DNA from: Phialocephala subalpina
Lineage: Eukaryota > Ascomycota > Leotiomycetes > Helotiales > Mollisiaceae
Assembly (NCBI GenBank): GCA_900073065.1
Contig: FJOG01000045.1
Location: 161,954-225,953 of the forward strand
Direction: 5' to 3'
DNA length: 64,000 bases
Positions within the stretch are counted from its first letter, which is position 1; each line of letters starts with the position of its first letter. A program made the position numbers and the translations under genes. Below the pieces are notes generated by a model that saw only the letters and a list, made by a program, of their open reading frames with translations, ran no database searches and was not told the origin of the DNA. Positions 1 through 64,000 of this stretch are shown piece by piece.

Positions 1-1188
1 ATGGTGGAGAAAGTCTTTGAATGTCCCAGGTGTCTCGGTGACCAGGGCCATTCGTTGGCGGTATAACTTCAGCGGGATCGAGGAATCGATCGTTCTCGCT
101 GTCGGTGCTGAGGTCTCAGTCTCAGCCGAATGCTTCTCGCCTGCCTCGATGCCCTTCTCTTCGCCACAAACTAGAATTTCAGATACTGCTACCTTTTCAC
201 CCATTGTGGTGGCCATGTACTTCGTCTCTTCGTAGAAGAAGAGGAAGAGGACCATGATGATTCCGAAGAAGATGGTGCACCACCAATATATCCATGGCCA
301 GCCTTGTGATTGAGCTGAGTAGCCTGCCGCGACTGGAGCAAGGTAAACTCCTACATTGACGAAAATCAAATAAATGGCATTCATTATGCCTCTTTGGTGA
401 AGGAAAAACAGATCGTTAACCTGTTGAAAAGTGAGTACACGATCGCGATGGGACTGGGGACTGAAGACTCTCACCGTCATCTGGACAATCGTGTCCGCAA
501 CAGCTCCAGCAAGACCCATGACGAGGTCTACTCCCATCATGCTACCATAAGTACGTAATCTCGCCTACCAAATCGTGGTAAAGAACATCACAAATGTCGT
601 GACGATGTATATCGGACGTCGGCCATACTTGATCGAGAACGGGATGAACATGAGGCAGCCCAAAGCAAGCCCAGCGCAATTGAGACCGAAAGTGTTGTTC
701 AGTTGCTCATAGGTCATGCCCAGTTCTTCGACATAGTCTTGGAAAACGATCACTGGGATATCTTGGCTGCAGGAGTGACGAGATTAGCACTTCCATCTTC
801 TGATGCGAGAGGGGTTACATACAATGCGAAAACCATAAGCACGTAGAATGCCACTAGGGAGAAGTTCACGATCTTGCGTGAGTAGGTCCAATTCTGAGCA
901 GCGGTCAGTAGATGAGGGATACGAAAGTACTGCTTAAAATTACCAAAGGGTCATTTGGATCTTCAGATGGCTGTGGATACAATACCAGTGTGCCATCATG
1001 TCCATGTTTGAGCTTTGATCGAGCTATATTGCACTGTCAGCAACTTTGGGAAATGGGGCGGGCAAAACTAGGTAAAAGAACCCACAGTTCTCCAGAACAA
1101 CAGTTCCAGGAGCTTCCACGAGGATCGCGGCAGCAGCAGCAGTTCCTGCTTCAACGTCTGCGGAAGTTTCCTCCGTTGAACTCGGCAT
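1..1188 (-). pseudogene. MFS transporter gene, 3' end outside window, interrupted by an in-frame stop
   Basis: Proposed exons on the minus strand: 1188-1086, 1023-944, 893-823, 766-475 and 420-1 (runs off the window). All junctions keep frame. The N-terminus is hydrophilic, then comes the fungal MFS hallmark PSEDPNDPLNW, the first membrane helices, a loop with GRRPIYI (MFS motif A region) and further on NDLFFLHQRG and the GWPWIYWWCTIFFG helix, a pattern typical of fungal drug/polyamine H+ antiporters of the DHA1 type. A TAG at 565-567 interrupts exon 4 where relatives usually have a Gln (W-Q-A-R context); the frame stays open on both sides and no plausible intron removes the stop. I therefore call it a probable pseudogene, or an allele with one nonsense change. 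The substrate cannot be told. It is divergent from the deaminase gene at 1730. Confidence 0.72.
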
Positions 1189-3246: not shown

Positions 3247-5199
3247 TATCCCCCAAAGAAAACAGCCACAATCTCTCATCGACTCGATGACGAGGATCAG
3301 AGGTACATACTTGTATTTTTGTTCAAATATCAATCTTATTCCCCCCAAAAAACCCAGGGCGATTCCAAACTCGGAGTTCAAGCAGTTTATCGTGAACAAC
3401 AAGTAGCCGGTTACTGGCATTGACAGGCGCTTCAACCACTGAAGAAGACTGCGATCGTGAGAATCAAGAGCACCATCAAAAGATCTCATCACGACCTGGA
3501 GCAATTCCCCGGCTTCCAGAATGCGTTTGAGTAACCTTTTACTCGCCTCAAGTGGTTTCTATGAAGATATAGAGTCGCGAAATAAGAAAAGAATTAAAAT
3601 GCTGTGTTGTAGGATGTATGACTTTTGTGATCGAGGTCCCAGCAGGTCCCCACTGAGATTTCGGCGCTCAAGCCATCTCAAGTGTCAGCCTCGGTAGTGT
3701 GCCAATCACTGGAGATTCTGCAGATCAAGCGCTAGCAAGCCCAAACCTGAACGTCAACATCGTGGACGCTCGACGTCGCCTCGATCATCCTCACTCCTTT
3801 ACAATTCACTCTATAATACTTCTCTCTCACACAATAATACGGAAAGGTCCAGAGAGACACTGTAGCAGAGTTTATTGTTAATATTCGATTTGTCTAGACC
3901 AGCTCAATTGTAGCTGCTTCAAATTTGTTCATTACAGATCATGATAGACTCGGGACAACTACGATCGTGGACTTCATGTTTTTCAAGAACGTCTTTAATA
4001 GATGAGTTGCAATTTACTTCGGTTTCTCGAGACCAGCGTTTCAATGTCCCCTCCTTGCCTGGGATATTCAGGCCAATCTCTCAGAATAAAAGAATTTCAT
4101 TAAAATTGGTTTGTGGTTCTCAAAGTACGGAGCCGGTGCCCGTGGAATGTCAAATCAGACTAACCGATGGATATATAGCACATGGTAGCTATCAGGACGA
4201 AGGGACAGAATATGGTTATTGCTAAACCATGCTAGCTTCGAAATCCCAGAGTGCGGAGGACCATCTAGCTTTATGCACTATGACTTACTGTAGATGCTAG
4301 GGTTCAGATCTCTTGAAAGCTCAAGTGAGTCTCGGTAGAATCTAGATCTCCCGTAGTGGAACATCCCCCAAATCCCGGAAATCGAAAGGATACTGTAGCT
4401 CCAGTCTCCAGATCACCTGAAATCTTCGGATCGCATTTCTCAAGCTGTCTCCGATTGGATATTGAAGACAAGGGCTTCAACGAAATTTTGTGCACGAGTT
4501 GTGTCTGCCCCTCCGCCTGCACGGATAGCAGCTATCCGCGAGCCGACTACGGAATGTCAACAGAGATATTTTTCTTCGATCTTGCCCTATCCAGTATATT
4601 GCACGAATAGGATACCGAGGTTGGGACGATTACGGCTGGGCTGTTCTTCCCAAGCGGGTTTTAACAGAAAACACCTGCATCTTTTTTTTAAAAAAAAAAA
4701 GCCCCACTACGGCGATCGCAAAAGGATTGAACCAAGGTCCCATAGCAAAATACTCTTTAGACCTTATTATGGAGTTCATTTTGGTCCCAAAAGAGTTTGA
4801 GTTTATAAAGTGGATTCTGGAGAAGGTGGGGTGATTTGCAACCCCAGTGGGATGACCCGGTCTCCAAGCTCATGGACAACGTGACGACAGCGACTTAATA
4901 TTATTACGGACGAAATAGTTTGCCCAAAGCCTACGATAACGGAAATCATGAGATTGGATTTGTGCAGGAATCAGACGATGTTTTCTCATTGGAGAAAGAG
5001 CTGTTTCTGGCTGCCCCGAGTCGTCCCTTCGATGTTGCCTCTATCGGGATTTCGCAAATATTCTGTTCCGGCTGCGTATTCGTATCTTCTTTGATATTGA
5101 CATATTTCTGTGCAGCTTCTGTCGCCTCAAATGTTATATACTAACATGTATCTCCTTCGTTACTTTCTATCCGGTTTTAAACTCTGAGAAAAACCGGCC
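3247..5199. other. Intergenic, no gene recognised
   Basis: About 1.95 kb between the deaminase and the ABC transporter. Open frames are short and of random composition. A T8A11-type homopolymer junction sits near 4680-4700. No tRNA, LTR or transposon core was recognised. The last few hundred bases should contain the ABC transporter promoter. Confidence 0.5.
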
Positions 5200-8100
5200 A
5201 TGTCTTCGCTATCAGGTAACATAGTTCCTGCAATGAGCCAAAACCGAAGCACCCCAGGACCTATCAATGGTCGCCCCAGTACCGAAATGAGTTCACTGTC
5301 TATGACAGTTGTTGACAACGATACCGAGCGGAGCAGTTCTGCTCGGCCCCAATCTAGAAGACAGCAAAGCATAGTGAGCTTGCCCCAGGAAACCCAAGAC
5401 CAGATACACGAACTTGCACGACGCCTGACTTCAGCGTCGATGATCTCGAACCATGGACAAAAAACACAGAATCCTTTCTTCGGGACTTCTGATCCAGCAC
5501 TAGACCCTAATTCTAACTCCTTCGAATTCGAAGCTTGGCTCGATAAGTTGGTGGACAAGCAGAAAGCTGAACGAACCCCAACTCCTAACGCTGGTATCTC
5601 GTTTCGAAATTTAAGTGTTCACGGCTTTGGATCTCCAACAGATTATCAAAAAGACTTCGCCAACGTCTTCCTCGAGGGACTAGGCATGATTCAGAAGATG
5701 ATGGGTAAAGGTCAGACCAGGATCCAGATATTAGATAGATTTGATGGCTTGGTCAAAGAGGGAGAGATGCTAGTAGTTCTTGGCCGTCCTGGGAGGTAAG
5801 TTCCAGTCTCTCCGTTGAGGGTATGCCGCACTAACACTCCGGTTTCAGTGGCTGCTCAACTCTGCTCAAGACAATTGCTGGTGAAACCGCAGGATTCCAT
5901 GTCGACCCAGCCTCTATTCTCAATTATCAAGGCGAGAATCTCTTCCAACTCTTGAAGCAATGCAATTCTAATCTTATCTATTCTAGGAGTGCCTAAAGAG
6001 CAGATGTACAAATCCTTCCGAGGCGAGATCATTTACAATGCCGAAACCGAGATCCACTTCCCCAACCTAACTGTTAGCGAAACTCTCTCATTTGCTGCTA
6101 AGGCACGGGTTCCCCGCAATCGACCACATGGAGTAAGTCGGAAAGTGTACGCCGAGCATTGGCGGGATGTGGCACTTGCACTGTTTGGATTGAGACATAC
6201 TGTGAATACGAAGGTTGGAAACGACTTTATTCGAGGAGTAAGCGGAGGTGAACGCAAACGGGTCTCTATCGCAGAGGCATTCCTTGCCCATTGCACTTTA
6301 CAATGCTGGGATAACAGCACCAGAGGCCTCGATAGCGCAACTGCTCTCGAATTTGTGAAGACGTTGCGAACTGCATCAACTATTGCAGGAACAACTGTCG
6401 TTGTTGCCATCTATCAGGCCTCCCAGGCAGCATATGATGCAAGTCTTTCTCAATTGGGTGAATATGACGAGAGCTAACGGTATCACACAGGTCTTCGACA
6501 AAGTGACTCTTCTCTACGAGGGACGACAGATTTTCTTTGGGCGAACCGATCAGGCAAAAATCTACTTTGAGCGACTTGGGTTCTTCTGTCCCGATCGTCA
6601 GACTACGGCCGATTTCCTGACCTCGATCACCTCTCCTTCCGAACGTATCGTCAGAGCTGGATGCGAGCACATGGTACCCAGGAGCCCCGATGAGTTCGCA
6701 GAAGCTTGGAAGAAAAGCGATGAAAGAATGGAGCTACTGAGTGAAATTCATGCTTTTGAGCAAGAGTTTCAGCTCGGTGGTCCCCAGCTGAATTTGTTCA
6801 AGGAAGCTCGGAAGGATCGGCAAGCAAAGCATACGTGAGTGCACCCTCCACAAGCACGAGATGCTCTATTTTCGAAACAACTCTAAATATCATAACAGGA
6901 GGCCAGGATCTCCCTACACAATCTCGATCGCCATGCAGATCGGACTTTGCATCACTCGTGGCTTTCAAAGACTTCGCGGAGATATGTCCCTCTTCTGGAC
7001 TAGTGTTCTCGGAAACTGGATGATGGCTTTGATAATTAGCAGCGTATTCTACAACTTGCCGAGTAATACTTCGAGCTTCTACAGCAGAGGGGCTTTGCTA
7101 TTTTTTGCAACTCTGCTGAACGCCATGAGTTCCGCCATTGAGGTCTGTCTTCCCGGTGCGCGTTTGAAGATCATGTTACTGATACCAAGAATTGTCCAGA
7201 TTTTGACACTCTACGCTCAAAGACCCATCGTTGAAAAACACACTAAATACGCTTTCTATCATCCATCTGCAGAAGCATTCGCCTCAATGGTGTGCGACCT
7301 CCCCGCCAAGATTCTCACTGCTACAGCTTTCAACTTGACGTTATACTTCATGGCAAATTTGCGAAGAGAACCTGGAGCATTTTTCATCTTCTTCCTATTC
7401 TGTTTCAGCACAACTTTGACAATGTCGATGATCTTCCGCACTATTGCCTCAATGTCCAGGACTCTCTCGCAGGCTATGGTACCAGCATCGTTGTTTATAC
7501 TTGCCTTGACAATTTATGCAGGCTTCGCCATTCCTACTCGAGACATGCACGTCTATTTCCGTTGGATCAACTACATTAACCCTGTGGCGTATGCATTTGA
7601 AAGCCTCATGGTTAATGAATTCCACGGTCGACAGTTCCTCTGTTCCACCTTTGTGCCGCAAGGCCCAGCCTATGGAAATGCCACTGGCTTGGAGCGAATC
7701 TGCTCAACAGTCGGAGCAGTCGCTGGATCTGCTGTGGTTGATGGAGGTGAGAACATTCTCAGACAGCTCTCGTGACAATTTGCAAGACGCACAGCTCAAC
7801 TCAAGCAGCCGCGATTACAAAACCCCGTCTCAGTCCAAATTTATTCAAAATAATCAATGACCAGTGCTAACCAAGAGAACTTTCAGATGCCTATGTAGCA
7901 CAATCGTTTCGATACTATTATTCACATCTGTGGAGGTAAACATCATTACAATCAATTTCAAAGTTAGGTCAGCTCATTCGCGATAGGAACTTTGGCATCA
8001 TCATCGCCTTCATGTTTTTCTTCCTTGGTACCTACCTTATAGGTACCGAATACATATCGGCAGCTCGATCGAAAGGCGAGATTCTCGTCTTCAAACGTGG

Positions 8101-10556
8101 TCACGTTCCAAAAATAGCGAGTTCTCGGGATGAGGAAGCAGCACCAATTCCGGAAGTCCAAAGAGTTGTAGCAGAAATCTCTGGCTCTGAATCTGAAAAG
8201 AATGTTTCCGCGAAGAACGAACAAAACGGGGTGCCAGAGACCATTCAGAAACAAACTGCCGTCTTCCATTGGAAGGATGTTTGCTACGATATCAAGATCA
8301 AAGGAAATCCAAGGCGACTCTTGGATCATGTTGATGGCTGGATCCGACCAGGAACTTTGACTGCACTTGTGGTAGGTTGAAATACTTCTCGATATCTTGT
8401 GCGAGCACTAATAATTGTACAAGGGAGCTTCAGGAGCCGGCAAGACAACCCTTTTGGATGTACTCGCGAGTCGAGTTACTATGGGCATTGTGACCGGTCA
8501 GATGTTAGTGGACGGTCACCAACGAGACTATTCCTTCCAACGCAGAACTGGATATGTTATGCAGCAAGATCTCCACCTTGAGACCTCAACTGTGAGGGAG
8601 GCGTTATTGTTTAGTGCGTTACTTCGACAGCCTGCTCATGTCAGCAAAGAAGACAAGGTTAAGTATGTAGATGAGGTGATCAAATTATTGGAAATTGAAG
8701 AGTATGTTCAAGTCCTGGAGACCACCTTTTTTCTGCCCTCAATGCTAACAATAGATTTATCAGGTATTCGGACGCTGTTGTAGGAGTCCCGGGTGAAGGT
8801 AGGGTTTCTCCATTGTTTGAGACGACTAATTGAAAATTGTTCATCGCTAATTTCCTACAGGCCTGAACGTCGAACAGCGGAAACGCCTTACAATAGGTGT
8901 AGAGCTCGCAGCAAAACCACAATTACTCCTTTTTCTAGACGAGCCTACATCAGGCCTTGACAGTCAAACGGCATTTTCAATCTGTAGCCTGCTCCGCAAA
9001 CTGGCTGACAATGGTCAAGCTATCCTGTGTACCATCCATCAACCCTCAGCCATCCTCTTCCAGAGCTTTGACAGAATCCTTTTGCTAGCAGCTGGAGGGA
9101 AGACAATCTACTTCGGAGATATTGGACCAAATTCGCAGACTGTCACCAAGTACTTCCAAAGCAAAAGTGGAGTCGGCTGCCCACCAGAAGCTAATCCGGC
9201 TGAATGGATTCTGGAGCAGATTGGTGCAGCTCCCGGTCACCACAGCTTATACGACTGGGCACAATTATGGATCGATAGTGAAGAACGATCTCAACTCAGA
9301 AGTCAACTAGATGAGATGAAAGAAACTCTTTCGAAGAAACCCGTCCAGCCAGATACTCATCAAACGACATTTGCTACTTCATTTTGGTACCAAACTTACT
9401 GGGTCACACGGCGTTGCTTCGAACAGTACTGGCGTACTCCAACTTATCTTTATTCGAAATGCGCCTTGTGTATCTTTCCAGTACGTACTTTCCCAGGGGC
9501 AAACAGATACGAGGTTCGCTAATACTTTCTCACCCCACCAGTCCTTATTCATCGGATTCTCCTTCTTTAAAGCCGAAAACTCCATCCAAGGTCTCCAAAA
9601 CCAAATGTTTGCTGTCTTCATGATCTTTACAGTTTTCGGGAACCTGGTTCAACAAATCATGCCTCAATTCGTCACTCAACGAGCTCTCTTCGAAGCTCGA
9701 GAGAGACAATCAAAATCACACTCCTGGCAAGCATTCCTCGTTGCGAATATAGTCGTTGAGCTGCCTTGGAATGCACTTATGGCGGTCTTGATGTACATGT
9801 GCTGGTACTATCCCATTGGTTTATACCGAAATGCAGAGCCGACTGATGCAGTACACGAACGGGGTGCTTTAATGTTCCTCTTCGCGTTATCGTTCTTGTT
9901 GTTTACTTCAACTTTTACAAATATGGTTATTGCGGCAATTGAGGTGGCCGAGACTGGTGGTATGGTGGCAAATTTGATGTTCTCACTGACGCTGATATTC
10001 TGCGGGTACGTCTTTACGAAGTTATCATCAGTCCTCTCAAGATCTTTGCACGTTCGTGATCTTGAATCGTTCATGCTGATTGTTCTATAGTGTACTTGCT
10101 TCACCAAACACGATGCCACATTTTTGGATCTTCATGTACCGAGTTTCCCCGTTCACCTACCTCGTCAGCGGAATGTTGTCTACAGGTCTCGCCGATCAAA
10201 AGGTTATATGTTCGTCTATTGAGGTCCTTAGTTTCGATCCACCCATCAACCAGACTTGTGGCTCGTACATGGCCGATTACATGTCCTTGGCCGGTGGCGT
10301 GGTGTATAATCCCGAGGCGACTGCAGGCTGCCAATTCTGCTCAGTGACGAACACAAACGTTTATTTGTCAGCGCTTGGAGCGAGCTATAGTGAGGCTTGG
10401 CGCAACTTTGGTTTGATGTGGGTGTATATCATTTTCAACATCTTTGGAGCAGTAGCACTCTACTGGTTGGTGCGAGTACCGAAGAAATGGAGTATTTCAG
10501 GAGGGTTAAGATGGGTTCAGAAGCGACTTGCTCAGACGGGAACCTCAAGGAAGTGA
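5200..10556 (+). CDS. PDR-type (ABC-G full-size) multidrug transporter
   Basis: Thirteen exons keep one frame: 5200-5795, 5849-5931, 5987-6438, 6491-6834, 6899-7142, 7200-7746, 7887-7935, 7987-8371, 8424-8701, 8764-8798, 8861-9480, 9542-10005, 10091-10556; product 1520 aa, normal for PDR transporters. Layout is (NBD-TMD)x2. NBD1 has the fungal degenerate Walker [13 protein letters not shown], signature [13 protein letters not shown] and [16 protein letters not shown]2 has canonical Walker [13 protein letters not shown], the PDR-type signature [12 protein letters not shown] and Walker [17 protein letters not shown]. Each is followed by a six-helix membrane domain, including [20 protein letters not shown] and a Cys-rich last extracellular loop before the final helix. 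It would export hydrophobic compounds across the plasma membrane using ATP. Introns 2 and 3 use GC donors. The long intron 6 (7747-7886) is unremarkable. It could serve metabolite or fungicide efflux; nothing in the sequence decides. Confidence 0.93.
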
Positions 10557-14631: not shown

Positions 14632-17600
14632 CTAGAACTCCCATTGTTCTAACCATATCCTCATCCATTCCATATGGACACTTGTCAACTCCCTCATCTT
14701 CTCACTCTTTGCTTGAGTCTCCTTTGTATCCATTTTCACTCCTGAACCACCACTTTTCATTACTTGATAAAAATCGAACAACTTCACAGCTGGGTTTATC
14801 TCCACGTCAACTTCTTTCTTCTTCGCACTGTGCTCCAGCCTCGTCAACCACTGATCAAAGCTTACAATGTCCACTTGCTGCCCAGATTTCCCAAAATACA
14901 CCTTGATAGCTGGGACCAAGTCCTGCCACTTGCCTTCATTTGTGTTGAACAAATGATAGTATTCTGTCCACGCCCCTGCTTCCCTTTTCCCACTTTCGCC
15001 GGCACAGTTAACCAAAACCAACTCTCCCACAATCTCAGCCAATAAATCGACAGGAACCCATTGCACACTCTCGTGTCCCGGTAACTCATTCGGCAAAGCA
15101 CCCAGGTATTTCGAGCTAGCGATCAAGCTCGGCAACCATTCCTTTTGGTTCCAAATACCTTTCGTCCCTCTCTCAACAGGACCAGCAATCTGTCCGACTC
15201 TGAGGATTGCACTGCTGACTTCGGATCTCGTTCTAGCAGCACCAAGGAGATTCTCTGAAATCCATTTGCTCTCACTGTAGCCTTGATGTAGTGGTATGCG
15301 AGGATCTTTGAGCGCGGTTTCAGGAACAAGGGTATGATCAGGGTTGATCTCGTTCCAGTTTACAAGCGTCCCAATACTGGAGGTGAAGAATATCGGCGGC
15401 GATAGATGAGACTGAAAAGATAAAGAAATCAAGCTCAGCACTCCTTCGATATGTGGTGTGAATGAGGAGAGGTCGAGGTTGAAGTCAACGGTCCATTGAT
15501 TGTCTGGATTTCGGTCAGTCAGATTAAGCGAGCGAGAAAGGGGGGGGGGCAAAACGCACGGATAAGGACCGATACTTCATTCTTCAATTTGGTAAAGACA
15601 TTTTCATCCACGCCCAAGTTCGGCTTGCTCAAGTCAGCCTGGAGGAACTCGAGCCTCTGATCCCACTTCGAGATTAGACCTTTCTCTGCATTCTCCTTCG
15701 CTTGTCGTTCCTCGGCATCGTCGGTTCTATTCAAGCAGTAGATCTTCGAGATTTTCGTCGAAGTGATAAGTGTATGTAGCAGATACGATCCAAGAGAGCC
15801 GGTACTTCCTGTAAGCAATACCACCAACTCATGGTTGCTCGTAGGCGAAATGTTATTCTTGGTTGTTCCTGTGGGCTTTGGTAGCTTGACCACAAAGTCG
15901 TCAAGAATATCTTGCATTCGCTGTTCTCGGGTTATGCCGTCGACAACATTGGTGTTACTTTGGGCCAGACGCAGCCTCTTCAATGAAAGCGCAAGCGCGA
16001 CAAGGGAAGAGTTACTGTAAATGAGTCGGGTGTTGATCTCATCATGTGGTAACCCCACAAGCGTGAGCTTCAATAGTCTGACCAGGGTCATGACGTGCAA
16101 AGAATCCATGCCCATTGCGAAGAAATCCTGCTCCGGCTTCAAGTTCTGAATCTTTACCACACTCTCAACCAAAGCTCCAACACTTGTCTCCAGACTTTTC
16201 AAGTCCTGATTAATGTCGATTTTCGGCAAGGCCACGATATCCTCACCCTCATCAACTCGCTTATAGATTTCATCGATCTCTTTTGCGTAGAACTTGACGG
16301 TTGCACCCCTCTGCATGGTACCTTTCCCTGCCCTCGCAAAAGGCTTTTCCGGGTCACTCAAAATAATTCTGTCCAAACTCAACTGCGCATGAGCGGGTGC
16401 AGCCTCATTCGCCTTCATCGCATATTGCCAGACATCTTCCTCAAGGTACCTAGCTTTCTTCTCAGGATCCGTAAGGGATCCAGCAATCTCTTCCTTGAGT
16501 TCAATGATAGCAGCTGGTACGAATCGTGATTGTCCGACCACCAATGCTCCCTTCACGGCGGGGTGCTGACGAAGAGTAACTTCCATGCTCGTTGGGTTCA
16601 GCTTCTCCCCATTGCTGAGGACAATCACATCGTCTGCTCGTCCAGCATAGAGCCAAAGATTGGGTTTCGTAGGATGCGGAGTGTAGAGATCATTCATGGA
16701 GTACTCTTCGAGGTCAGGAAAGGTCCACCAAGCGGAATGGAATTGGTCGGATGATTCATGTCGAACGAAAATCTGTTCGTAAGCACCATCACCAGCAGGA
16801 CGGAATTCGATGCCTTTGTGTTCTGGAGTGAAGTGGAAATATTCCCAGTCCTCGGGTGCTTTGTCCCAGAATGGGAGTGGGCCCATCTCAGTGGAGCCTG
16901 TTGTATTCATAAGCAAGCTCTTTTGGCAGAGGATGTTTCCCACTTCGGTGCCTAAGGGTGCTGTTTGAATGCTAAGCATAATCGCTAGGATGTTTTTAGA
17001 CTGAGATACTTACCTCCACCATATCCAACCACGGCAAGTTTCTCGAGCCTCTTCAAAGACGCATGCGATTGTACCATATCTTCAAGAATCGAAGGAGCTA
17101 TGTAGATCATGTCTGCTCCTGAAGTATCCAAGACTTCGTCAACGAGTACAGCGCTGAGAGGTCGATTGGATGGCCCCCAGACCATGATGAGATCGTACCA
17201 CAGGGGTGCCATGAAACCGACAATGATTCCGGCGGACTATAATCGGATTAGTTGATGAAGATAATCTCCTTGTTGAGGATGTTACTTACATGGAATGGAG
17301 GTAGAGCAACAAATGCCTTTCTATTCCTGAGCTTCCACCATAGTGGCTCATACCCATCGATGTGCGGCAGGAGGTTATATGCATCCATTGCGCTGGTCCA
17401 CCCATGCTTCAGTACTATTGGTTTCGGTAGGCCAGTTGAGCCAGAGGTATGGAGCACCACAAATGGATCATGCTTTGCCTCATCGTAGCTTTTGGTGAAC
17501 GAATAGTAAGGTGCATGACCTTCGGCCAACAGACTGGCAACAGAAGGGATTGGTATTGGCGAGAGGCCGATGTGAGAAATGAACTCTGGCGATATGTGGT

Positions 17601-24775: not shown

Positions 24776-25800
24776 ATTGGTCAATAATATTATTAGTCTA
24801 ATATTTTATACTTATAATTAATTATTACAAGTTCTTTATAAGTGGAAATATAGAGTCTTAATTTAAATTTAAGGATTAATAATATTAAATTATCTCTAGA
24901 TATATTTTCTAATAACGAGGTATTAATTATATAATCCCTTTATTATAAATTTATAAGATTTGAATTTCTTTTAAATATATTAATTCTTATTGGCGAAATT
25001 ATTGGAATCGATTATTATTTTATTTTATTATTAAACAAAAAATTAATATTTTTTAATTTGGAATTAAATTATATAAATTATATTTTATTAATTCCTTTTA
25101 ATTTAATATATAAATATTAATATAATAAATATAATTTTTGATATATATAATAAAAGTTTATTCAAATTTTTTATTTAAATTATAATATATTTATTAAAAT
25201 ATTTGAAAATAAATAATTATTATTTATATTAATAATAAAAATTAAAAAAAATTCTTTTTCTAATAAATTTAAAATATTTATTATTTTATTTATTATAATA
25301 TTAATTTTATCGAAATTATAAAAATTATAATTTAAAATATTATATTTATAAAAAATAATTAATAAATTTTTTCTTTGAATAAAATTCTTATATTTTATTA
25401 TTATTAAAAATTATTTATAATATATTAGAAAATTATTTTTATAATAATTTAATTCGAAATTCTTAAGAATTTATTTAAATTTTTAAAAAATATTATTAAA
25501 ATATAATAAAATTAAAATAATAAAACTTTAATTTCTATTTAATTTAATTAATTAAAAAATTGAAAATTAAATTATTATAAATTATATAATAATTATAATT
25601 TAAAATTTAATATATATAATTCTCGAAACTTTAAAAAAAATTTAAGAAATTATATTCACTTTCTATTATAATAAGATCTTAAAATCACATGAAATTTTAA
25701 AGTAATTTTTAATTAAGAAATAAAAATATTATAATTTAATTAATTATATTATAAATATTAACCTTAGAATAAAATATTTAATTTACTTGAGACTTAGAAA
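24776..25800. repeat. Nearly pure A/T block (RIP-type AT-rich island)
   Basis: About 1 kb composed almost only of A and T, with G and C nearly absent and no open frame. Borders are sharp: normal composition returns near 25800. The block resembles AT-rich islands left when repeats are mutated by RIP in ascomycetes. No LTR, inverted repeat or coding fossil can be read in it, so its origin is not known. The origin by RIP is inference from composition. Confidence 0.75.
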
Positions 25801-37350: not shown

Positions 37351-38734
37351 TGTGTTGACAGAAACGAGTGAAGAGCTTTCTAGGTGATGTATGGAAACAG
37401 GAAACCAAGACTTGAAGATCTTCCGAGCGCTGTGAAGAGAAGTGCATGAAAGCGTCGAAGATTGATGGTTATTGATGAAGAGAAGAGGAACGAGAGAAGG
37501 AAAGGAAGATGTAAACAAGACTTGGAAATGATGAGGAAGGAGGGGGTGAGTGCTTGGGGCAAGAGCAAATGTCCCGTGGCGACCGGGACATTTTGGAAGG
37601 TGCGAACAGAGGCCAAGCAGAATCGCGACCTACCAGTAACCACAGATGGATGCCATCAGAATTCCAGATCATTTCCAAATGTCCTGGCGATTGTGGGACA
37701 TTGGAAAGAAGGAGACTGCAGGATCTCATACCTGTGCCCGCGCTGGCTAGGAGATGTGGGAAGGTGCGAGTGTAGGTGATCGAGTACAAGTTTGAAGCAC
37801 GACCTACTTAACTCTTTAAACGCTCTGAAATATCCCTACTGTTCTGGGGCATTGCATAGACGCGAAAATCCAGATATCGAGAACATTGCCCAGGATCAGG
37901 CCCATAACTTCAAATTCCTGAAATCTGAAATCTTGATGTCCCGTAATGGCTGGGACATTTTCATCTTGGAAACGCGCTCCGCTCCACCCCGAGGTAGAGC
38001 TCAGGCCTAACCTTTGAGCCTTTCGACTGGTAATTACAATGTCCTGACTGGATTGGAGCATTGTCGGGAGGAGTTTCACGAAATTCGAGACTGGTCGGAG
38101 TACGCGTGGAGACCAAGTTCGCAATGTCCAGCGGAGACAAGAACATTGGGGATACCGATGCAGAAGAATGACGGTTCTCAAGCGGATATGAGATGACAGA
38201 CTCTACTTCGAGCGCGATCATTGTCCCTACAGTCACCGGACATTGGAGTGACAGGGCTTAGAAATCTGTCGTATTGCCAACCTTCAGAACACGCAGCTTT
38301 GATGTAACAGATCTCATAGATGACCCTGAAGATGACTCCTGATGAAATTTCTGAAAAATATCGAAGGAACGCGTAAATATATAGGTTGAAATATCGAGAC
38401 CGAAATGAGAGTTGATGAAAAGGGAAGACGTTTTCGTGATGTTGTTGAAGTTCTTATGCATCCTTGCACAAAGCCTCGGCTGCTTGCACAACTTCGCATA
38501 AAATTATCCAAACCTCAAAGCTGTCCACAACTCCAAATCTCCAACCAGCCCACCAGCTCGCGACAATTCCCAGCAGGCTGCCATTCCTCCAGTGTCCTCC
38601 CCTACCACGCCCTCCACCATCTTCCTCCTTCTGCGATCATTCGACCTGCGAGCAAAAACCATTGACGCGACAATTCCTCTACCCAGCCTCCCATAAACAC
38701 CACCACAAATCAACCTGACACCAAGAACCTCACC
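37351..38734. other. Divergent intergenic region with a palindrome array
   Basis: 1.38 kb between the divergent AIG1-like and SEC11 genes. It holds the array of imperfect palindromes listed next and otherwise no gene. Confidence 0.6.
37567..38245. repeat. Array of seven palindromes AATGTCCC-loop-GGGACATT
   Basis: Seven copies at about 37567-37593, 37672-37707, 37829-37853, 37935-37959, 38036-38064, 38121-38149 and 38219-38245. The first is perfect (10-base arms AAATGTCCCG/CGGGACATTT, 7-base loop); the second has 12-base arms with one bulge; the others keep the ATGTCC and GGACAT cores with one to three mismatches. Centres are spaced roughly 85-150 bp. Sequence between palindromes is poorly alike, with weak similarity such as GACCTAC after copies 1 and 2. 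The array could be a set of protein-binding sites, a diverged tandem repeat, or dispersed short elements. Confidence 0.75.
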
Positions 38735-39471: not shown

Positions 39472-40042
39472 TGGCATGGTTTTACGGCAGGCGTTTGGAG
39501 GAATACCCAAATGTATGATATCAAAAGTCAATGCACCTGGGAATAGGACAATAGCATGACATATCAAATGCATATTGCTTCGGCCGTCGAATTGGGCTGT
39601 GCGCAAATATCCAAGCCACCCACGTATTTTGAGAATGCTGCCACACACACATCTTTCAAACTGGGCTTGGGAAACATCTCCACAACCCCTCCAAATATTC
39701 CTAAGCATCAAATTGTTCTTCGAGACGTGGGACATTAGTCAGCTTTGGTCTGTTGACAAATTTCCTCTTCAGAAACTCCACAGCCTTGTTCCACCACTAG
39801 CGCCTGCGGAGCGACAGGGATTAGGTTCCAAGCTCCATCTCCAAACTTTCTGGACTCTGACGTGAAGCAAGATTCCAAACACACAACAAAGGGTACAAAA
39901 TTTCAGAAGTATTTAATCGACTGTTCCTGCGACTAGATTCCTCTTCTATAACGAACATCTGTTATTGTCCTTCGACCTCAAGTACATCTGCAGCCAGCCT
40001 AAACTTCCTCCAACTACCCCACTATCCTAGCTGTTAGGCACT
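39472..40042. other. Intergenic, half palindrome only
   Basis: 571 bp between SEC11 and the E2 gene. One half-site GGGACATTAG of the palindrome family lies near 39729-39738. Nothing else seen. Confidence 0.45.
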
Positions 40043-40637
40043 ATGACACAGAAGAGGATCACCAAGGTATGCTTTACGCCCCCCAAATACTATCTCTTGA
40101 ATATGGCAGACAGTCCCCTAAGAAAATCAGGACACTGACAGCTTCCCAGGAGCTCCAAGAGGTGTTGGCAACTCCCCCACCAGGCATCAAAGTCAACCTA
40201 GTCGACGAAAGCAATGTCCACAACTGGAACATCATAATGGACGGCCCAGCCGACTCTCCCTACGCTGTACATTCCCCTTTCTCTCCCCCGTCAACCCTCT
40301 AACTAACAAATCATCTCCCCAGGGCGGCAAATTCCAACTCCTCCTCGTCCTCCCACCCGAATATCCATTCAAGCCCCCCAAGATCAACTTCAAAACCCGC
40401 ATCTACCACCCAAACGTCACCTTCGACGAACACGGAAGTATGTGTATCGGAATCCTGAAATCAGAAGCATGGAAGCCAAGCTCTCGAATCCCTAACGTCT
40501 TGACTGCTATCCAACAACTTCTTCTCGAGCCCGTACCTGATGATGCGCTGGAGCAAGCTACAGCCCAAAAGTTCAAGGAGGATAGAAAAGCGTATGATAA
40601 GGAGGCGAGAGAGATGACAAAGAAATACGCAAAGTGA
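40043..40637 (+). CDS. Ubiquitin-conjugating enzyme E2
   Basis: Exons 40043-40066, 40150-40266 and 40323-40637 give 151 aa, a minimal UBC domain. Landmarks: LPPEYPFKPPKINFKTRIYH followed by PNV (the HPN motif), then HGSMCIGIL with the active-site Cys that carries ubiquitin as a thioester, and a C-terminal helix DDALEQATAQKFKEDRKAYD. The fold matches the UBC4/UBE2L3 group by eye; I do not assign an orthologue. The first exon encodes only eight residues, MTQKRITK, which is usual for fungal E2 genes. Its stop codon overlaps a palindrome (40635-40664) of the same type as the 37.6-38.2 kb array. Confidence 0.92.
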
Positions 40638-40664
40638 ATGTCCCCGAGAAGCCGGGGACTTTCA
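40635..40664. repeat. Palindrome over the E2 stop codon
   Basis: Arms TGAATGTCCCCG and CGGGGACTTTCA with one mismatch and a 6-base loop; the first three bases are the E2 stop codon. Same core as the array at 37567-38245. It would form a stable hairpin at the start of the 3' UTR. Confidence 0.65.
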
Positions 40665-41655
40665 GAATGGGCTGGAAAGAGGCTGGGAGAGTAGCAGAGC
40701 TGAGGTCTCATGAAAATGATGCATACGAGCGTTTTGATTGTACCACGGCGTTCGGGACATTCAGAGCAGTCATGAACTTTAGAGGTCTGCATCGCGGGCG
40801 TGGAATTACTTTTGCAACCCAAATGGTCCTTTTCCGAGCCCGTGCTATTTTTCTCTGTTTTTGTCCATTTGAATGTCCCCGCCACTGTCAGTAACTGTCA
40901 ACAGCGACGAACCTCACCAGCTTGGCATTTCAACATCAAACTCCCCGCAGGCTTACTGGCAGTGGATCTCTAACTCAATTCGAGACAATTTCGAATAACT
41001 CCAATAGCCTTGCAACGTCCTTCTCCACTTTCGCGTTAAACAGCGAAGATCCCATCTTCCCAAAAAACGATACAGGGGGCCAGCAGCGCGTATCAGCCAG
41101 TGAGATTTGAGAACGCTCATGCAGTTATCCGTCACTATGCCCAAAGTATGCCTGCTAAACCTCGAAAACCAACACCGTCTCTCCAATAGTTTTCTCTCCC
41201 AGCAATTAAAGATTATATTAAATTATTCAAATCTGACCTCAGTGCAACGTGCCTTTTCAATAGACTTTGTTCAAATTGTTTGCACAAGAACTTTATGCGC
41301 GCTCTGTGACAGTTCTGATTCATCGGAAAAGGAACCTGACCTGGGTCATCTGGGTAATATCAGCTTCTGCTTGGACCACCGCAATCACGAAACATCCGGG
41401 ATCAGATCCCCAAAACAAAATACACAAAACACAAACTTCTATCCCTGGACTCAATTGACCTCGTTTTCGACCTTCGACATCTGCCAGAGCTGGTACGGAC
41501 ACTCTTCTCGACAATTGCATCCTCAAAGGACGGAATAGCAGACCGACATTCAGCGCGTATGGATCTCTGATACTTGGAACAAGGGTTGCGACATCGACCG
41601 GGTTTCTGGACCTCAAGTGGAGGCCCAACGCCCTGGCAGAGGAATTGGAGATAAA
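40665..41655. other. Intergenic, two half palindromes
   Basis: About 1 kb between the E2 and TBC genes. GGGACATTC near 40754 and GAATGTCCCCG near 40870 form a widely spaced inverted pair of the same core. The distal part is the TBC gene 5' region. No other feature seen. Confidence 0.5.
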
Positions 41656-63364: not shown

Positions 63365-63890
63365 TAACCTTCACAAGAGCTCCGAGGTACCAAAGACGTA
63401 TCTGTACTTGTATGTATCCTACTTCTTGAAAGCATGGTTTTGGAGTCATCTCTTTCTTCAGATTTCATGCCACCTATATATTCAGAAGAGTCGGGTGGGG
63501 TTGAACTCGCTGCAGTTTAACACCCCTTTTTCAACGTGATCGAGTTTCTTGGCGTCACTCTTGATCAAAACAGCTTTCTCGTACTGTGTTCTTTCCGCAA
63601 TTTTACTCGTGATGCTCGATACCCAAAATACCGCTGTCCTCTTTCAAGTGGAAGACTCTCTGGCCCTGGCCATGGTTATTAAGGATGGCGTGGGTTGGGT
63701 TGCAATTCGCTCGCTTCGCACCCCACTTAGCCCTTGGACTCCACGATAAGGCTACATTAACCTGCCTCGCAGACCGCCTTATTCTTATTATAGCTTGCTT
63801 AGCTTTATTTTATGCATTGCCTTGGTGTCTAATCGAGTTCTTTTGATAATCTATTTTCATAATAATAATTAAATATTATATATTAATTTT
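63365..63890. other. Intergenic, no gene recognised
   Basis: Upstream region of the split gene. A plus-strand frame at 63549-63749 lacks convincing composition. Composition becomes AT-rich after 63770. Confidence 0.4.
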
Positions 63891-64000
63891 AAAATAAATA
63901 AAATAAATAAAATAAATAAAATAAATAAAATAAATAAAATAAATAAAATAAATAAAATAAATAAAAATAAATAAAAATAAATAAAAATAAATAAAATAAA
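63891..64000. repeat. A/T-only 9-10 bp tandem repeat, continues past the window
   Basis: About a dozen units of AAAATAAAT, lengthening to AAAAATAAAT towards the end. Only A and T. Runs off the window edge. Confidence 0.9.

What the first reader, a model, noticed from the sequence alone, without database searches (positions are those of the whole stretch)
37567..38245. Regular array of seven ATGTCCC/GGGACAT palindromes in a divergent promoter region
Palindrome cores recur every ~85-150 bp while the DNA between them is hardly alike, as if the palindrome were kept by selection or by a spreading mechanism. It lies between an AIG1-like gene and SEC11, both transcribed away from it. Candidates: binding sites for a dimeric factor, a chromatin boundary, hairpin-forming mini-elements, or an unrecognised structured transcript. 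I know of no named element with this core.
Basis: seen in the sequence. Interest (0 to 1): 0.75.

Follow-up and report, generated by a model that had tools for sequence, protein, structure and literature searches.

The report
Thousands of fungal palindromes, some introner-borne
The seven palindromes in this fungal intergenic region are real and belong to thousands of copies scattered through introns, gene ends and some exons of the genome; some copies ride inside repeated introns, so they look more like remains of tiny mobile elements than promoter switches, though this is not yet proven.

Summary
Window 37566-38246 carries seven copies of ATGTCCC-N9-GGGACAT (two exact), 85-151 bp apart, with no detectable similarity between them; three more lie at 39710-40763. 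The genome is that of Phialocephala subalpina (protein matches). Genome-wide there are 97 exact sites with a 9-bp spacer (reversed-pattern control 0) and 4,128 with at most 3 mismatches in 16 arm positions (control 70). By a crude gene model, sites are densest in introns and convergent intergenic DNA and sparse in exons.

About 40 copies form an introner-like family of about 140 nt: most alignments end at the splice borders, palindrome in the middle, unlike flanks. A second repeat, 9 places, carries the palindrome near one end. Three of six palindromes in a WDR6 gene sit in lineage-specific insertions. An RNA hairpin is not supported. Sites closer than about 75 bp are almost absent.

Best reading: a cluster of old copies of short mobile elements that share this core. 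A protein-binding dyad kept by selection remains a serious rival, because flanks in the window array are unlike while arms are well kept. No sister-species DNA could be searched.

The parts
37566..37594 (.). palindrome 1, exact arms, spacer 9
   Evidence: 26.1 bits
37676..37704 (.). palindrome 2, one arm mismatch
   Evidence: 23.6 bits
37733..37761 (.). possible degenerate extra copy; GGAAGGTGCGA follows it as it follows palindrome 1; not significant
37827..37855 (.). palindrome 3, two arm mismatches
   Evidence: 16.1 bits
37933..37961 (.). palindrome 4, exact arms
   Evidence: 26.8 bits
38036..38064 (.). palindrome 5, three arm mismatches
   Evidence: 15.6 bits
38121..38149 (.). palindrome 6, three arm mismatches, weakest
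   Evidence: 9.5 bits
38218..38246 (.). palindrome 7, two arm mismatches
   Evidence: 19.9 bits
39710..39738 (.). further palindrome between SEC11 and the ubiquitin-conjugating-enzyme gene (a gap my gene finder read as an intron)
   Evidence: 14.6 bits
40635..40663 (.). further palindrome at the predicted end of the ubiquitin-conjugating-enzyme gene
   Evidence: 13.0 bits
40735..40763 (.). further palindrome, 100 bp downstream of the previous one
   Evidence: 22.0 bits
38735..39375 (+). SEC11 signal peptidase catalytic subunit, 5' part by crude gene model (neighbour of the array)

Best explanation
The palindrome is the shared core of a large, mostly old population of short non-autonomous mobile elements of the Phialocephala/Acephala lineage. 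Shown: the core is repeated thousands of times; one sequence family that carries it is a GT...AG-bounded introner-like element of about 140 nt; another repeat of about 190 bp carries it near one end; some copies sit in lineage-specific coding insertions. Inferred: the arms ATGTCCC/GGGACAT are the part that a mobilising factor recognises (so arms are kept among element lineages while spacer and flanks drift), and a copy decays once inserted. The window array is then a local cluster of such decayed copies and need not have any function at this promoter. The mobilising factor is unknown.
For: Copy number far above control. Family A: BLAST of one palindrome-bearing intron finds 40 places with the query itself (41 matches; 40 of 58 candidates scored); of the 39 others, 36 begin at query 9-19 (intron start 17) and 35 end at 141-161 (intron end 157). 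In 23 aligned copies the intron columns are 0.87 conserved, flanks 0.40 and 0.39; flanks joined without the intron are open in 16 of 22, with it in 4 of 22, antisense in 7 of 22. Family B: 9 places with the query (10 matches); 5 of the 8 others reach query 341-351. WDR6: 6 exonic palindromes in one reading frame, 3 of 6 mostly inside insertion columns that hold 115 of 1284 residues; the 20-aa insertion is absent from Acephala. Spacings: 2 of 134 at 29-75 bp against 20 at 75-121 and 22 at 121-167, as if each core sits in a unit of 75 bp or more. In copies paired by flank similarity, family A arms (80.9%) are no better kept than flanks (81.4%; 814 pairs). Spacers of 8 or 10 make up about 24% of loose sites (net 1,311 of 5,369) and at most 19 of 116 exact ones (the two patterns differ in arm length). 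A one-rate decay model fits 97 exact and 2,393 net sites at 2 mismatches or fewer with 30% divergence and about 16,000 ancestral copies.
Against: Flanks of most sites, the window array included, match neither each other nor family A (the array has no other genome match in a search with a loose first look), although arms in the array are well kept (11 mismatches in 98 positions, counted by eye). Tolerance is position-specific and alike in both arms (one C 96% kept, its neighbours about 80%), which looks like recognition by a protein. Some exonic sites are not insertions against the relatives seen: L021 472 aligns without a gap in two relatives, and L017 1857 and 1996 lie in ungapped, well-conserved sequence. 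No empty site was found among the held loci; target-site duplications were not searched for systematically. Family B arms (85.0%) are better kept than its flanks (74.9%; 56 pairs). In 50 kb taken at arbitrary places only 1 site of 11 bits or more was found, fewer than a population of 16,000 would suggest.
Confidence: 0.48

Rival explanations
1. The palindrome is a dyad bound by a dimeric nuclear protein (regulator, boundary or chromosome-organising factor) and is kept by selection at many sites; introners and other repeats merely carry or captured it.
For: Arms kept while flanks are unlike in the window array; spacer of exactly 9 in 97 of 116 exact sites; symmetric position-specific tolerance extending to the outer bases; no hairpin covariation, as expected for a DNA site; near-absence of spacings under 75 bp could be a footprint; similar loci L009/L031 keep 14 of 14 arm bases but 4 of 9 spacer bases (both were chosen for exact arms); family B arms better kept than flanks.
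Against: Not favoured in promoters. In copies found by their flanks the arms are no better kept than flanks in family A; in 12 other flank-matched pairs arms are 51% and flanks 72% identical, register uncertain. Spacer length differs by one base in about a quarter of loose sites. Coding insertions are unexplained.
Confidence: 0.35
2. The arrays are old tandem repeats in which only the palindrome stays recognisable.
For: Flank pairs within one locus reach a score of 50 or more in 5.5% of 199 pairs against 0.37% of 2,678 sampled between-locus pairs (the between set includes one pair of overlapping loci); L008 and L015 show extended same-orientation similarity between sites.
Against: The window array shows no such similarity, and duplication alone explains neither thousands of dispersed sites nor better-kept arms.
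Confidence: 0.1
3. RNA hairpin under selection in introns and transcript ends.
For: Single copies fold well: 37566-37594 -15.1 kcal/mol, z -3.9; the L040 intron -49.6, z -4.6; sites enriched in predicted introns.
Against: Double arm changes are not clearly compensatory (21 vs 16.4 expected; only the outermost pair exceeds, p 0.006); G-U-forming changes are not in significant excess on the transcript strand (introns 11 vs 20, within 500 bp of gene ends 15 vs 9, exons 16 vs 21); the family A consensus structure leaves out the palindrome; no Rfam match in the window at gathering thresholds.
Confidence: 0.05
4. Chance or compositional artefact.
For: None found.
Against: Controls of 0, 74 and 70 against 97, 2,467 and 4,128.
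Confidence: 0.01

Closest known systems
Introner-like elements of ascomycete fungi (van der Burgt 2012: recalled, and cited in papers seen; Collemare 2015, PMC4457414: part 1 of 4 of the text and passages; Gozashti 2022, PMC9860276: one section and passages)
   Same: Family A: similar introns in unlike contexts, ends mostly at GT and AG, decaying towards unrecognisable introns.
   Different: The same palindromic core also occurs outside introns, in arrays, in another repeat and in exons; family A copies are 78% identical on average, so probably not young.
Rickettsia palindromic elements and bacterial REP sequences (recalled; only a search listing seen)
   Same: Short palindromes in many copies, in clusters, some inside protein-coding genes.
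   Different: A fungal nuclear genome; conserved core only 25-29 bp with variable flanks; no partner transposase known; no clear stem covariation.
MITEs (recalled)
   Same: Short, non-autonomous, symmetric sequence, many copies.
   Different: Symmetry central or near one end, not at both termini; target-site duplications not searched for systematically.
Dimeric transcription-factor site clusters (recalled)
   Same: Dyad with preferred spacing and position-specific tolerance.
   Different: Prefers predicted introns and convergent regions; almost no spacings under 75 bp; carried within repeats.

Membership tests
introner-like element (family A only) | Similar introns at many unrelated places | tested here: met
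   40 places with the query; intron columns 0.87, flanks 0.40 and 0.39 conserved
introner-like element (family A only) | Borders coincide with GT and AG | tested here: met
   21 of 22 aligned copies begin GT, 16 of 22 also end TAG or CAG at the aligned column; L072, L073, L078, L081, L084 and L087 differ there
introner-like element (family A only) | Spliced from mRNA | not testable with these tools
   no RNA data; spliced flanks open in 16 of 22, unspliced in 4 of 22, antisense 7 of 22
introner-like element (family A only) | Recent gain shown by absence in relatives | not tested
   no relative's DNA available
introner-like element (window array) | Lies within GT...AG introns | tested here: not met
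   of 7 window sites tested one (37676) passes the loosest threshold, which 8.6% of decoys pass; none passes a stricter one; no family A flanks there
REP/RPE-like palindromic element | Many dispersed and clustered palindromes | tested here: met
REP/RPE-like palindromic element | In-frame insertions in coding genes | tested here: inconclusive
   3 of 6 WDR6 sites in insertions; exonic sites examined in L017 and L021 lie mostly in ungapped sequence
REP/RPE-like palindromic element | Stem kept by compensatory change | tested here: not met
   (outermost pair excepted)
MITE | Terminal inverted repeats and target-site duplications | tested here: inconclusive
   family A ends can pair weakly; duplications not searched for systematically
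transcription-factor site cluster | Arms kept beyond flanks in homologous copies | tested here: inconclusive
   family A no, family B yes; L009/L031 yes but selected
transcription-factor site cluster | Binding by a protein | not testable with these tools
   needs experiment

The most novel reading that the evidence does not exclude
A eukaryotic nuclear genome holds an RPE/REP-like system: a 25-29 bp palindromic core, recognised by an unknown factor, that spreads with little or no fixed flanking sequence into intergenic DNA, introns and reading frames, and that has seeded introner families and peptide insertions in conserved proteins.
Probability: 0.27. Interest if true: 0.87.

Novelty: new variant of a known kind. 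Interest (0 to 1): 0.62.

Why it matters
Ascomycete introners are described as lacking terminal repeats and target duplications, with an RNA route suggested (PMC9860276, section read). A core shared by an introner family, a second repeat, intergenic arrays and coding insertions would offer a handle on what mobilises them. The P. subalpina genome paper reports few repeats (TEs 5.7%, MITEs 0.1%; PMC5148876, passages) and its main text does not contain the string 'palindrom'; thousands of short decayed copies could have escaped such annotation. If instead the dyad is a selected binding site, it would be an abundant regulatory or architectural motif for which I found no name.

Tried and rejected
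RNA hairpin: disfavoured on covariation, wobble and consensus-fold tests. Chance: rejected. One single decayed family: rejected, because anchored flanks of 60 exact sites show almost no conservation beyond 3 bp, and the family A profile with palindromes masked hits 11 of 59 sequences at E 0.1 or better (9 of them at a site). Looking for an empty site in L010 led to an unrelated 256-bp tandem duplication. A third family from L009 gave only one other place. A similarity scan of window units was first wrong because masked letters matched each other and was redone. My first translations of partial genes used the wrong frame, corrected. Papers: none in the held library with both 'introner' and 'Phialocephala' or 'introners' and 'Helotiales'; a search for the string GGGACAT with palindrome and fungi gave 7 papers with unrelated titles (listing only); 'repetitive extragenic palindromic' with 'fungi' and 'nuclear genome' gave one unrelated title (listing only). 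Weak points: gene models come from a home-made coding model and are crude, e.g. one candidate intron (L017, 1472-1584) is coding in relatives, and SEC11 was fused to its neighbour; the site profile was built from exact sites, so arm conservation among its hits is biased upward; most loci were chosen around exact sites. One search used 96 of 97 spacers because one was mistyped and dropped. Genome listings show only the first places, so positions of most loose sites are unseen.

Full report
What is there. Window 37566-38246 holds seven copies of a dyad, ATGTCCC-N9-GGGACAT, at spacings of 110, 151, 106, 103, 85 and 97 bp. Two are exact; none of 100 shuffles has one. Three further copies lie at 39710, 40635 and 40735. 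The array lies upstream of SEC11, whose predicted start is 38735, and of a leftward gene whose AIG1-like label I could not confirm. DNA between the copies is no more alike than shuffled DNA, and a 900-bp query of the array found no other place in the genome, in a search with a loose first look.

The genome. Two proteins from loci of this genome match Phialocephala subalpina proteins at 100%. In its 68.1 Mb there are 116 exact arm pairs with spacers of 2-20 (reversed control 10), of which 97 have a spacer of exactly 9 (45 + 52; control 0). With up to 2 mismatches in 14 positions there are 2,467 (control 74); with up to 3 in 16, 4,128 (control 70), against 897 (90) for spacer 10 and 596 (92) for spacer 8. 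The extended consensus is WNRATGTCCCARRANTYYTGGGACATYNW, with almost no conservation further out (60 distinct exact sites).

Where the copies lie. By a crude gene model over about 295 kb, 169 sites at 14 bits or more fall at these rates per 10 kb: introns 21.7 (40 sites), convergent intergenic 12.8 (23), divergent 6.9 (10), tandem 3.1 (12), exons 3.0 (37); sequence ends with one known neighbour 5.8 and 5.2 (30 and 10), unassigned 5.8 (7). Up to six of the ten divergent sites are this window's array (my count; one search does not print it). Most sequences were chosen around exact sites; in 50 kb taken at arbitrary places there was 1 site at 11 bits or more.

Introner-like family A. One search lists 27 candidate introns of 54-141 nt that hold a palindrome and have good splice signals (one of them, in L017, is coding in relatives). 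BLAST of one such intron found 40 places with the query itself (40 of 58 candidates scored); of the 39 others, 36 begin at query 9-19 and 35 end at 141-161, the intron being 17-157. In 23 aligned copies the intron columns are 0.87 conserved and the flanks 0.40 and 0.39; mean pairwise identity is 0.78 over 22 copies. Flanks joined without the intron are open in 16 of 22, with it in 4 of 22, antisense in 7 of 22. This meets the main definition of introner-like elements; splicing itself was not tested. With palindromes masked, a family A profile hits 11 of 59 sequences at E 0.1 or better, 9 of them at a site and none in the window array; the best reversed-control E-value is 2.4.

Family B. L011 and eight other places share a repeat of about 190 bp with the palindrome (spacer near AATTGTTCT) near one end, AACTGATAAG units and a mostly common right end; some copies extend further to the left, and two (L091, L095) have lost a spacer base. 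The only likeness to family A that I noticed is the palindrome.

Exons. The WDR6 homologue (L060 with L029) has six palindromes in one reading frame. Against 12 more distant homologues, three of the six are mostly inside insertions; insertion columns hold 115 of 1284 residues in all. A 20-residue insertion is missing in Acephala macrosclerotiorum, which shares the regions of the other two. Against this, an exact site in L021 aligns without gaps in two relatives, and two sites in an RGS-domain gene lie in well-conserved ungapped sequence.

How it may work. Hairpin RNA is unlikely: no compensatory excess in the spacer (96 sites) and none clear in the arms (210 sites, 21 vs 16.4, outermost pair only), no significant excess of G-U-forming changes, no palindrome stem in the family A consensus fold. 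Spacings of 29-75 bp are nearly absent (2 against 20 and 22 in the next two bins of the same width), which suggests units of at least that size. When copies are paired by flanks, family A arms (80.9%) are no better kept than flanks (81.4%); family B arms are (85.0 vs 74.9%); 12 other pairs give 51% and 72%, register uncertain. Spacer-length variants of one base make up about 24% of loose sites and at most 16% of exact ones (19 of 116), a weak sign of ageing since the patterns differ. A one-rate decay model gives about 30% mean divergence and about 16,000 ancestral copies, but it assumes one rate and independent sites. Together this favours decaying insertions whose arms were the part needed for spreading; that last step is inference. 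The opposite signs are the unlike flanks of the window array, the symmetric position-specific tolerance and the exonic sites without insertions; they keep a selected protein-binding dyad open at about one in three.

Known relatives. Family A is like ascomycete introner-like elements (PMC4457414, PMC9860276; parts seen). The wider pattern recalls Rickettsia palindromic elements and bacterial REP sequences (recalled; listing), but stem covariation was tested and not clearly found, so I do not file it there. The P. subalpina genome paper (PMC5148876; passages) lists TEs at 5.7% and MITEs at 0.1% and does not use the string 'palindrom'.

Verdict. A real feature, unusual in number and distribution; the promoter setting of this array is probably incidental. 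Mobile-element origin 0.48, selected dyad 0.35.

Noticed in passing
L011:1496-1650 and L089-L095: Family B: a repeat of about 190 bp in 9 places with AACTGATAAG tandem units (many in L092) and a mostly conserved end CTAGCTACTTCGGGTTAG; nature unknown.
   Followed up: partly
L010:461-966: A 256-bp, 99.6% identical tandem duplication in and after a predicted coding end that looks like a P450 gene (recalled from the sequence).
   Followed up: no
window 25096-25502: Very A+T-rich repeats, perhaps RIP-mutated transposon remains (inference).
   Followed up: no
window 63890-64000: (TAAAATAAA)n tandem repeat of 12 copies at the window end.
   Followed up: no
window 5188-9522: Pieces of an ABC transporter gene or genes of the PDR type (ABC_trans_N, ABC2_membrane, PDR_CDR).
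   Followed up: partly
window 15519-17009: Carboxylate-reductase-like gene piece (AMP-binding C-terminal, PP-binding and NAD_binding_4 domains).
   Followed up: partly
L009:1394-1531 and L031:1400-1531: Two loci alike at 70% over an exon end and intron, both with an exact palindrome at the same place, arms 14 of 14 alike but spacer 4 of 9; L009 seems to lack the GT donor (by eye).
   Followed up: partly
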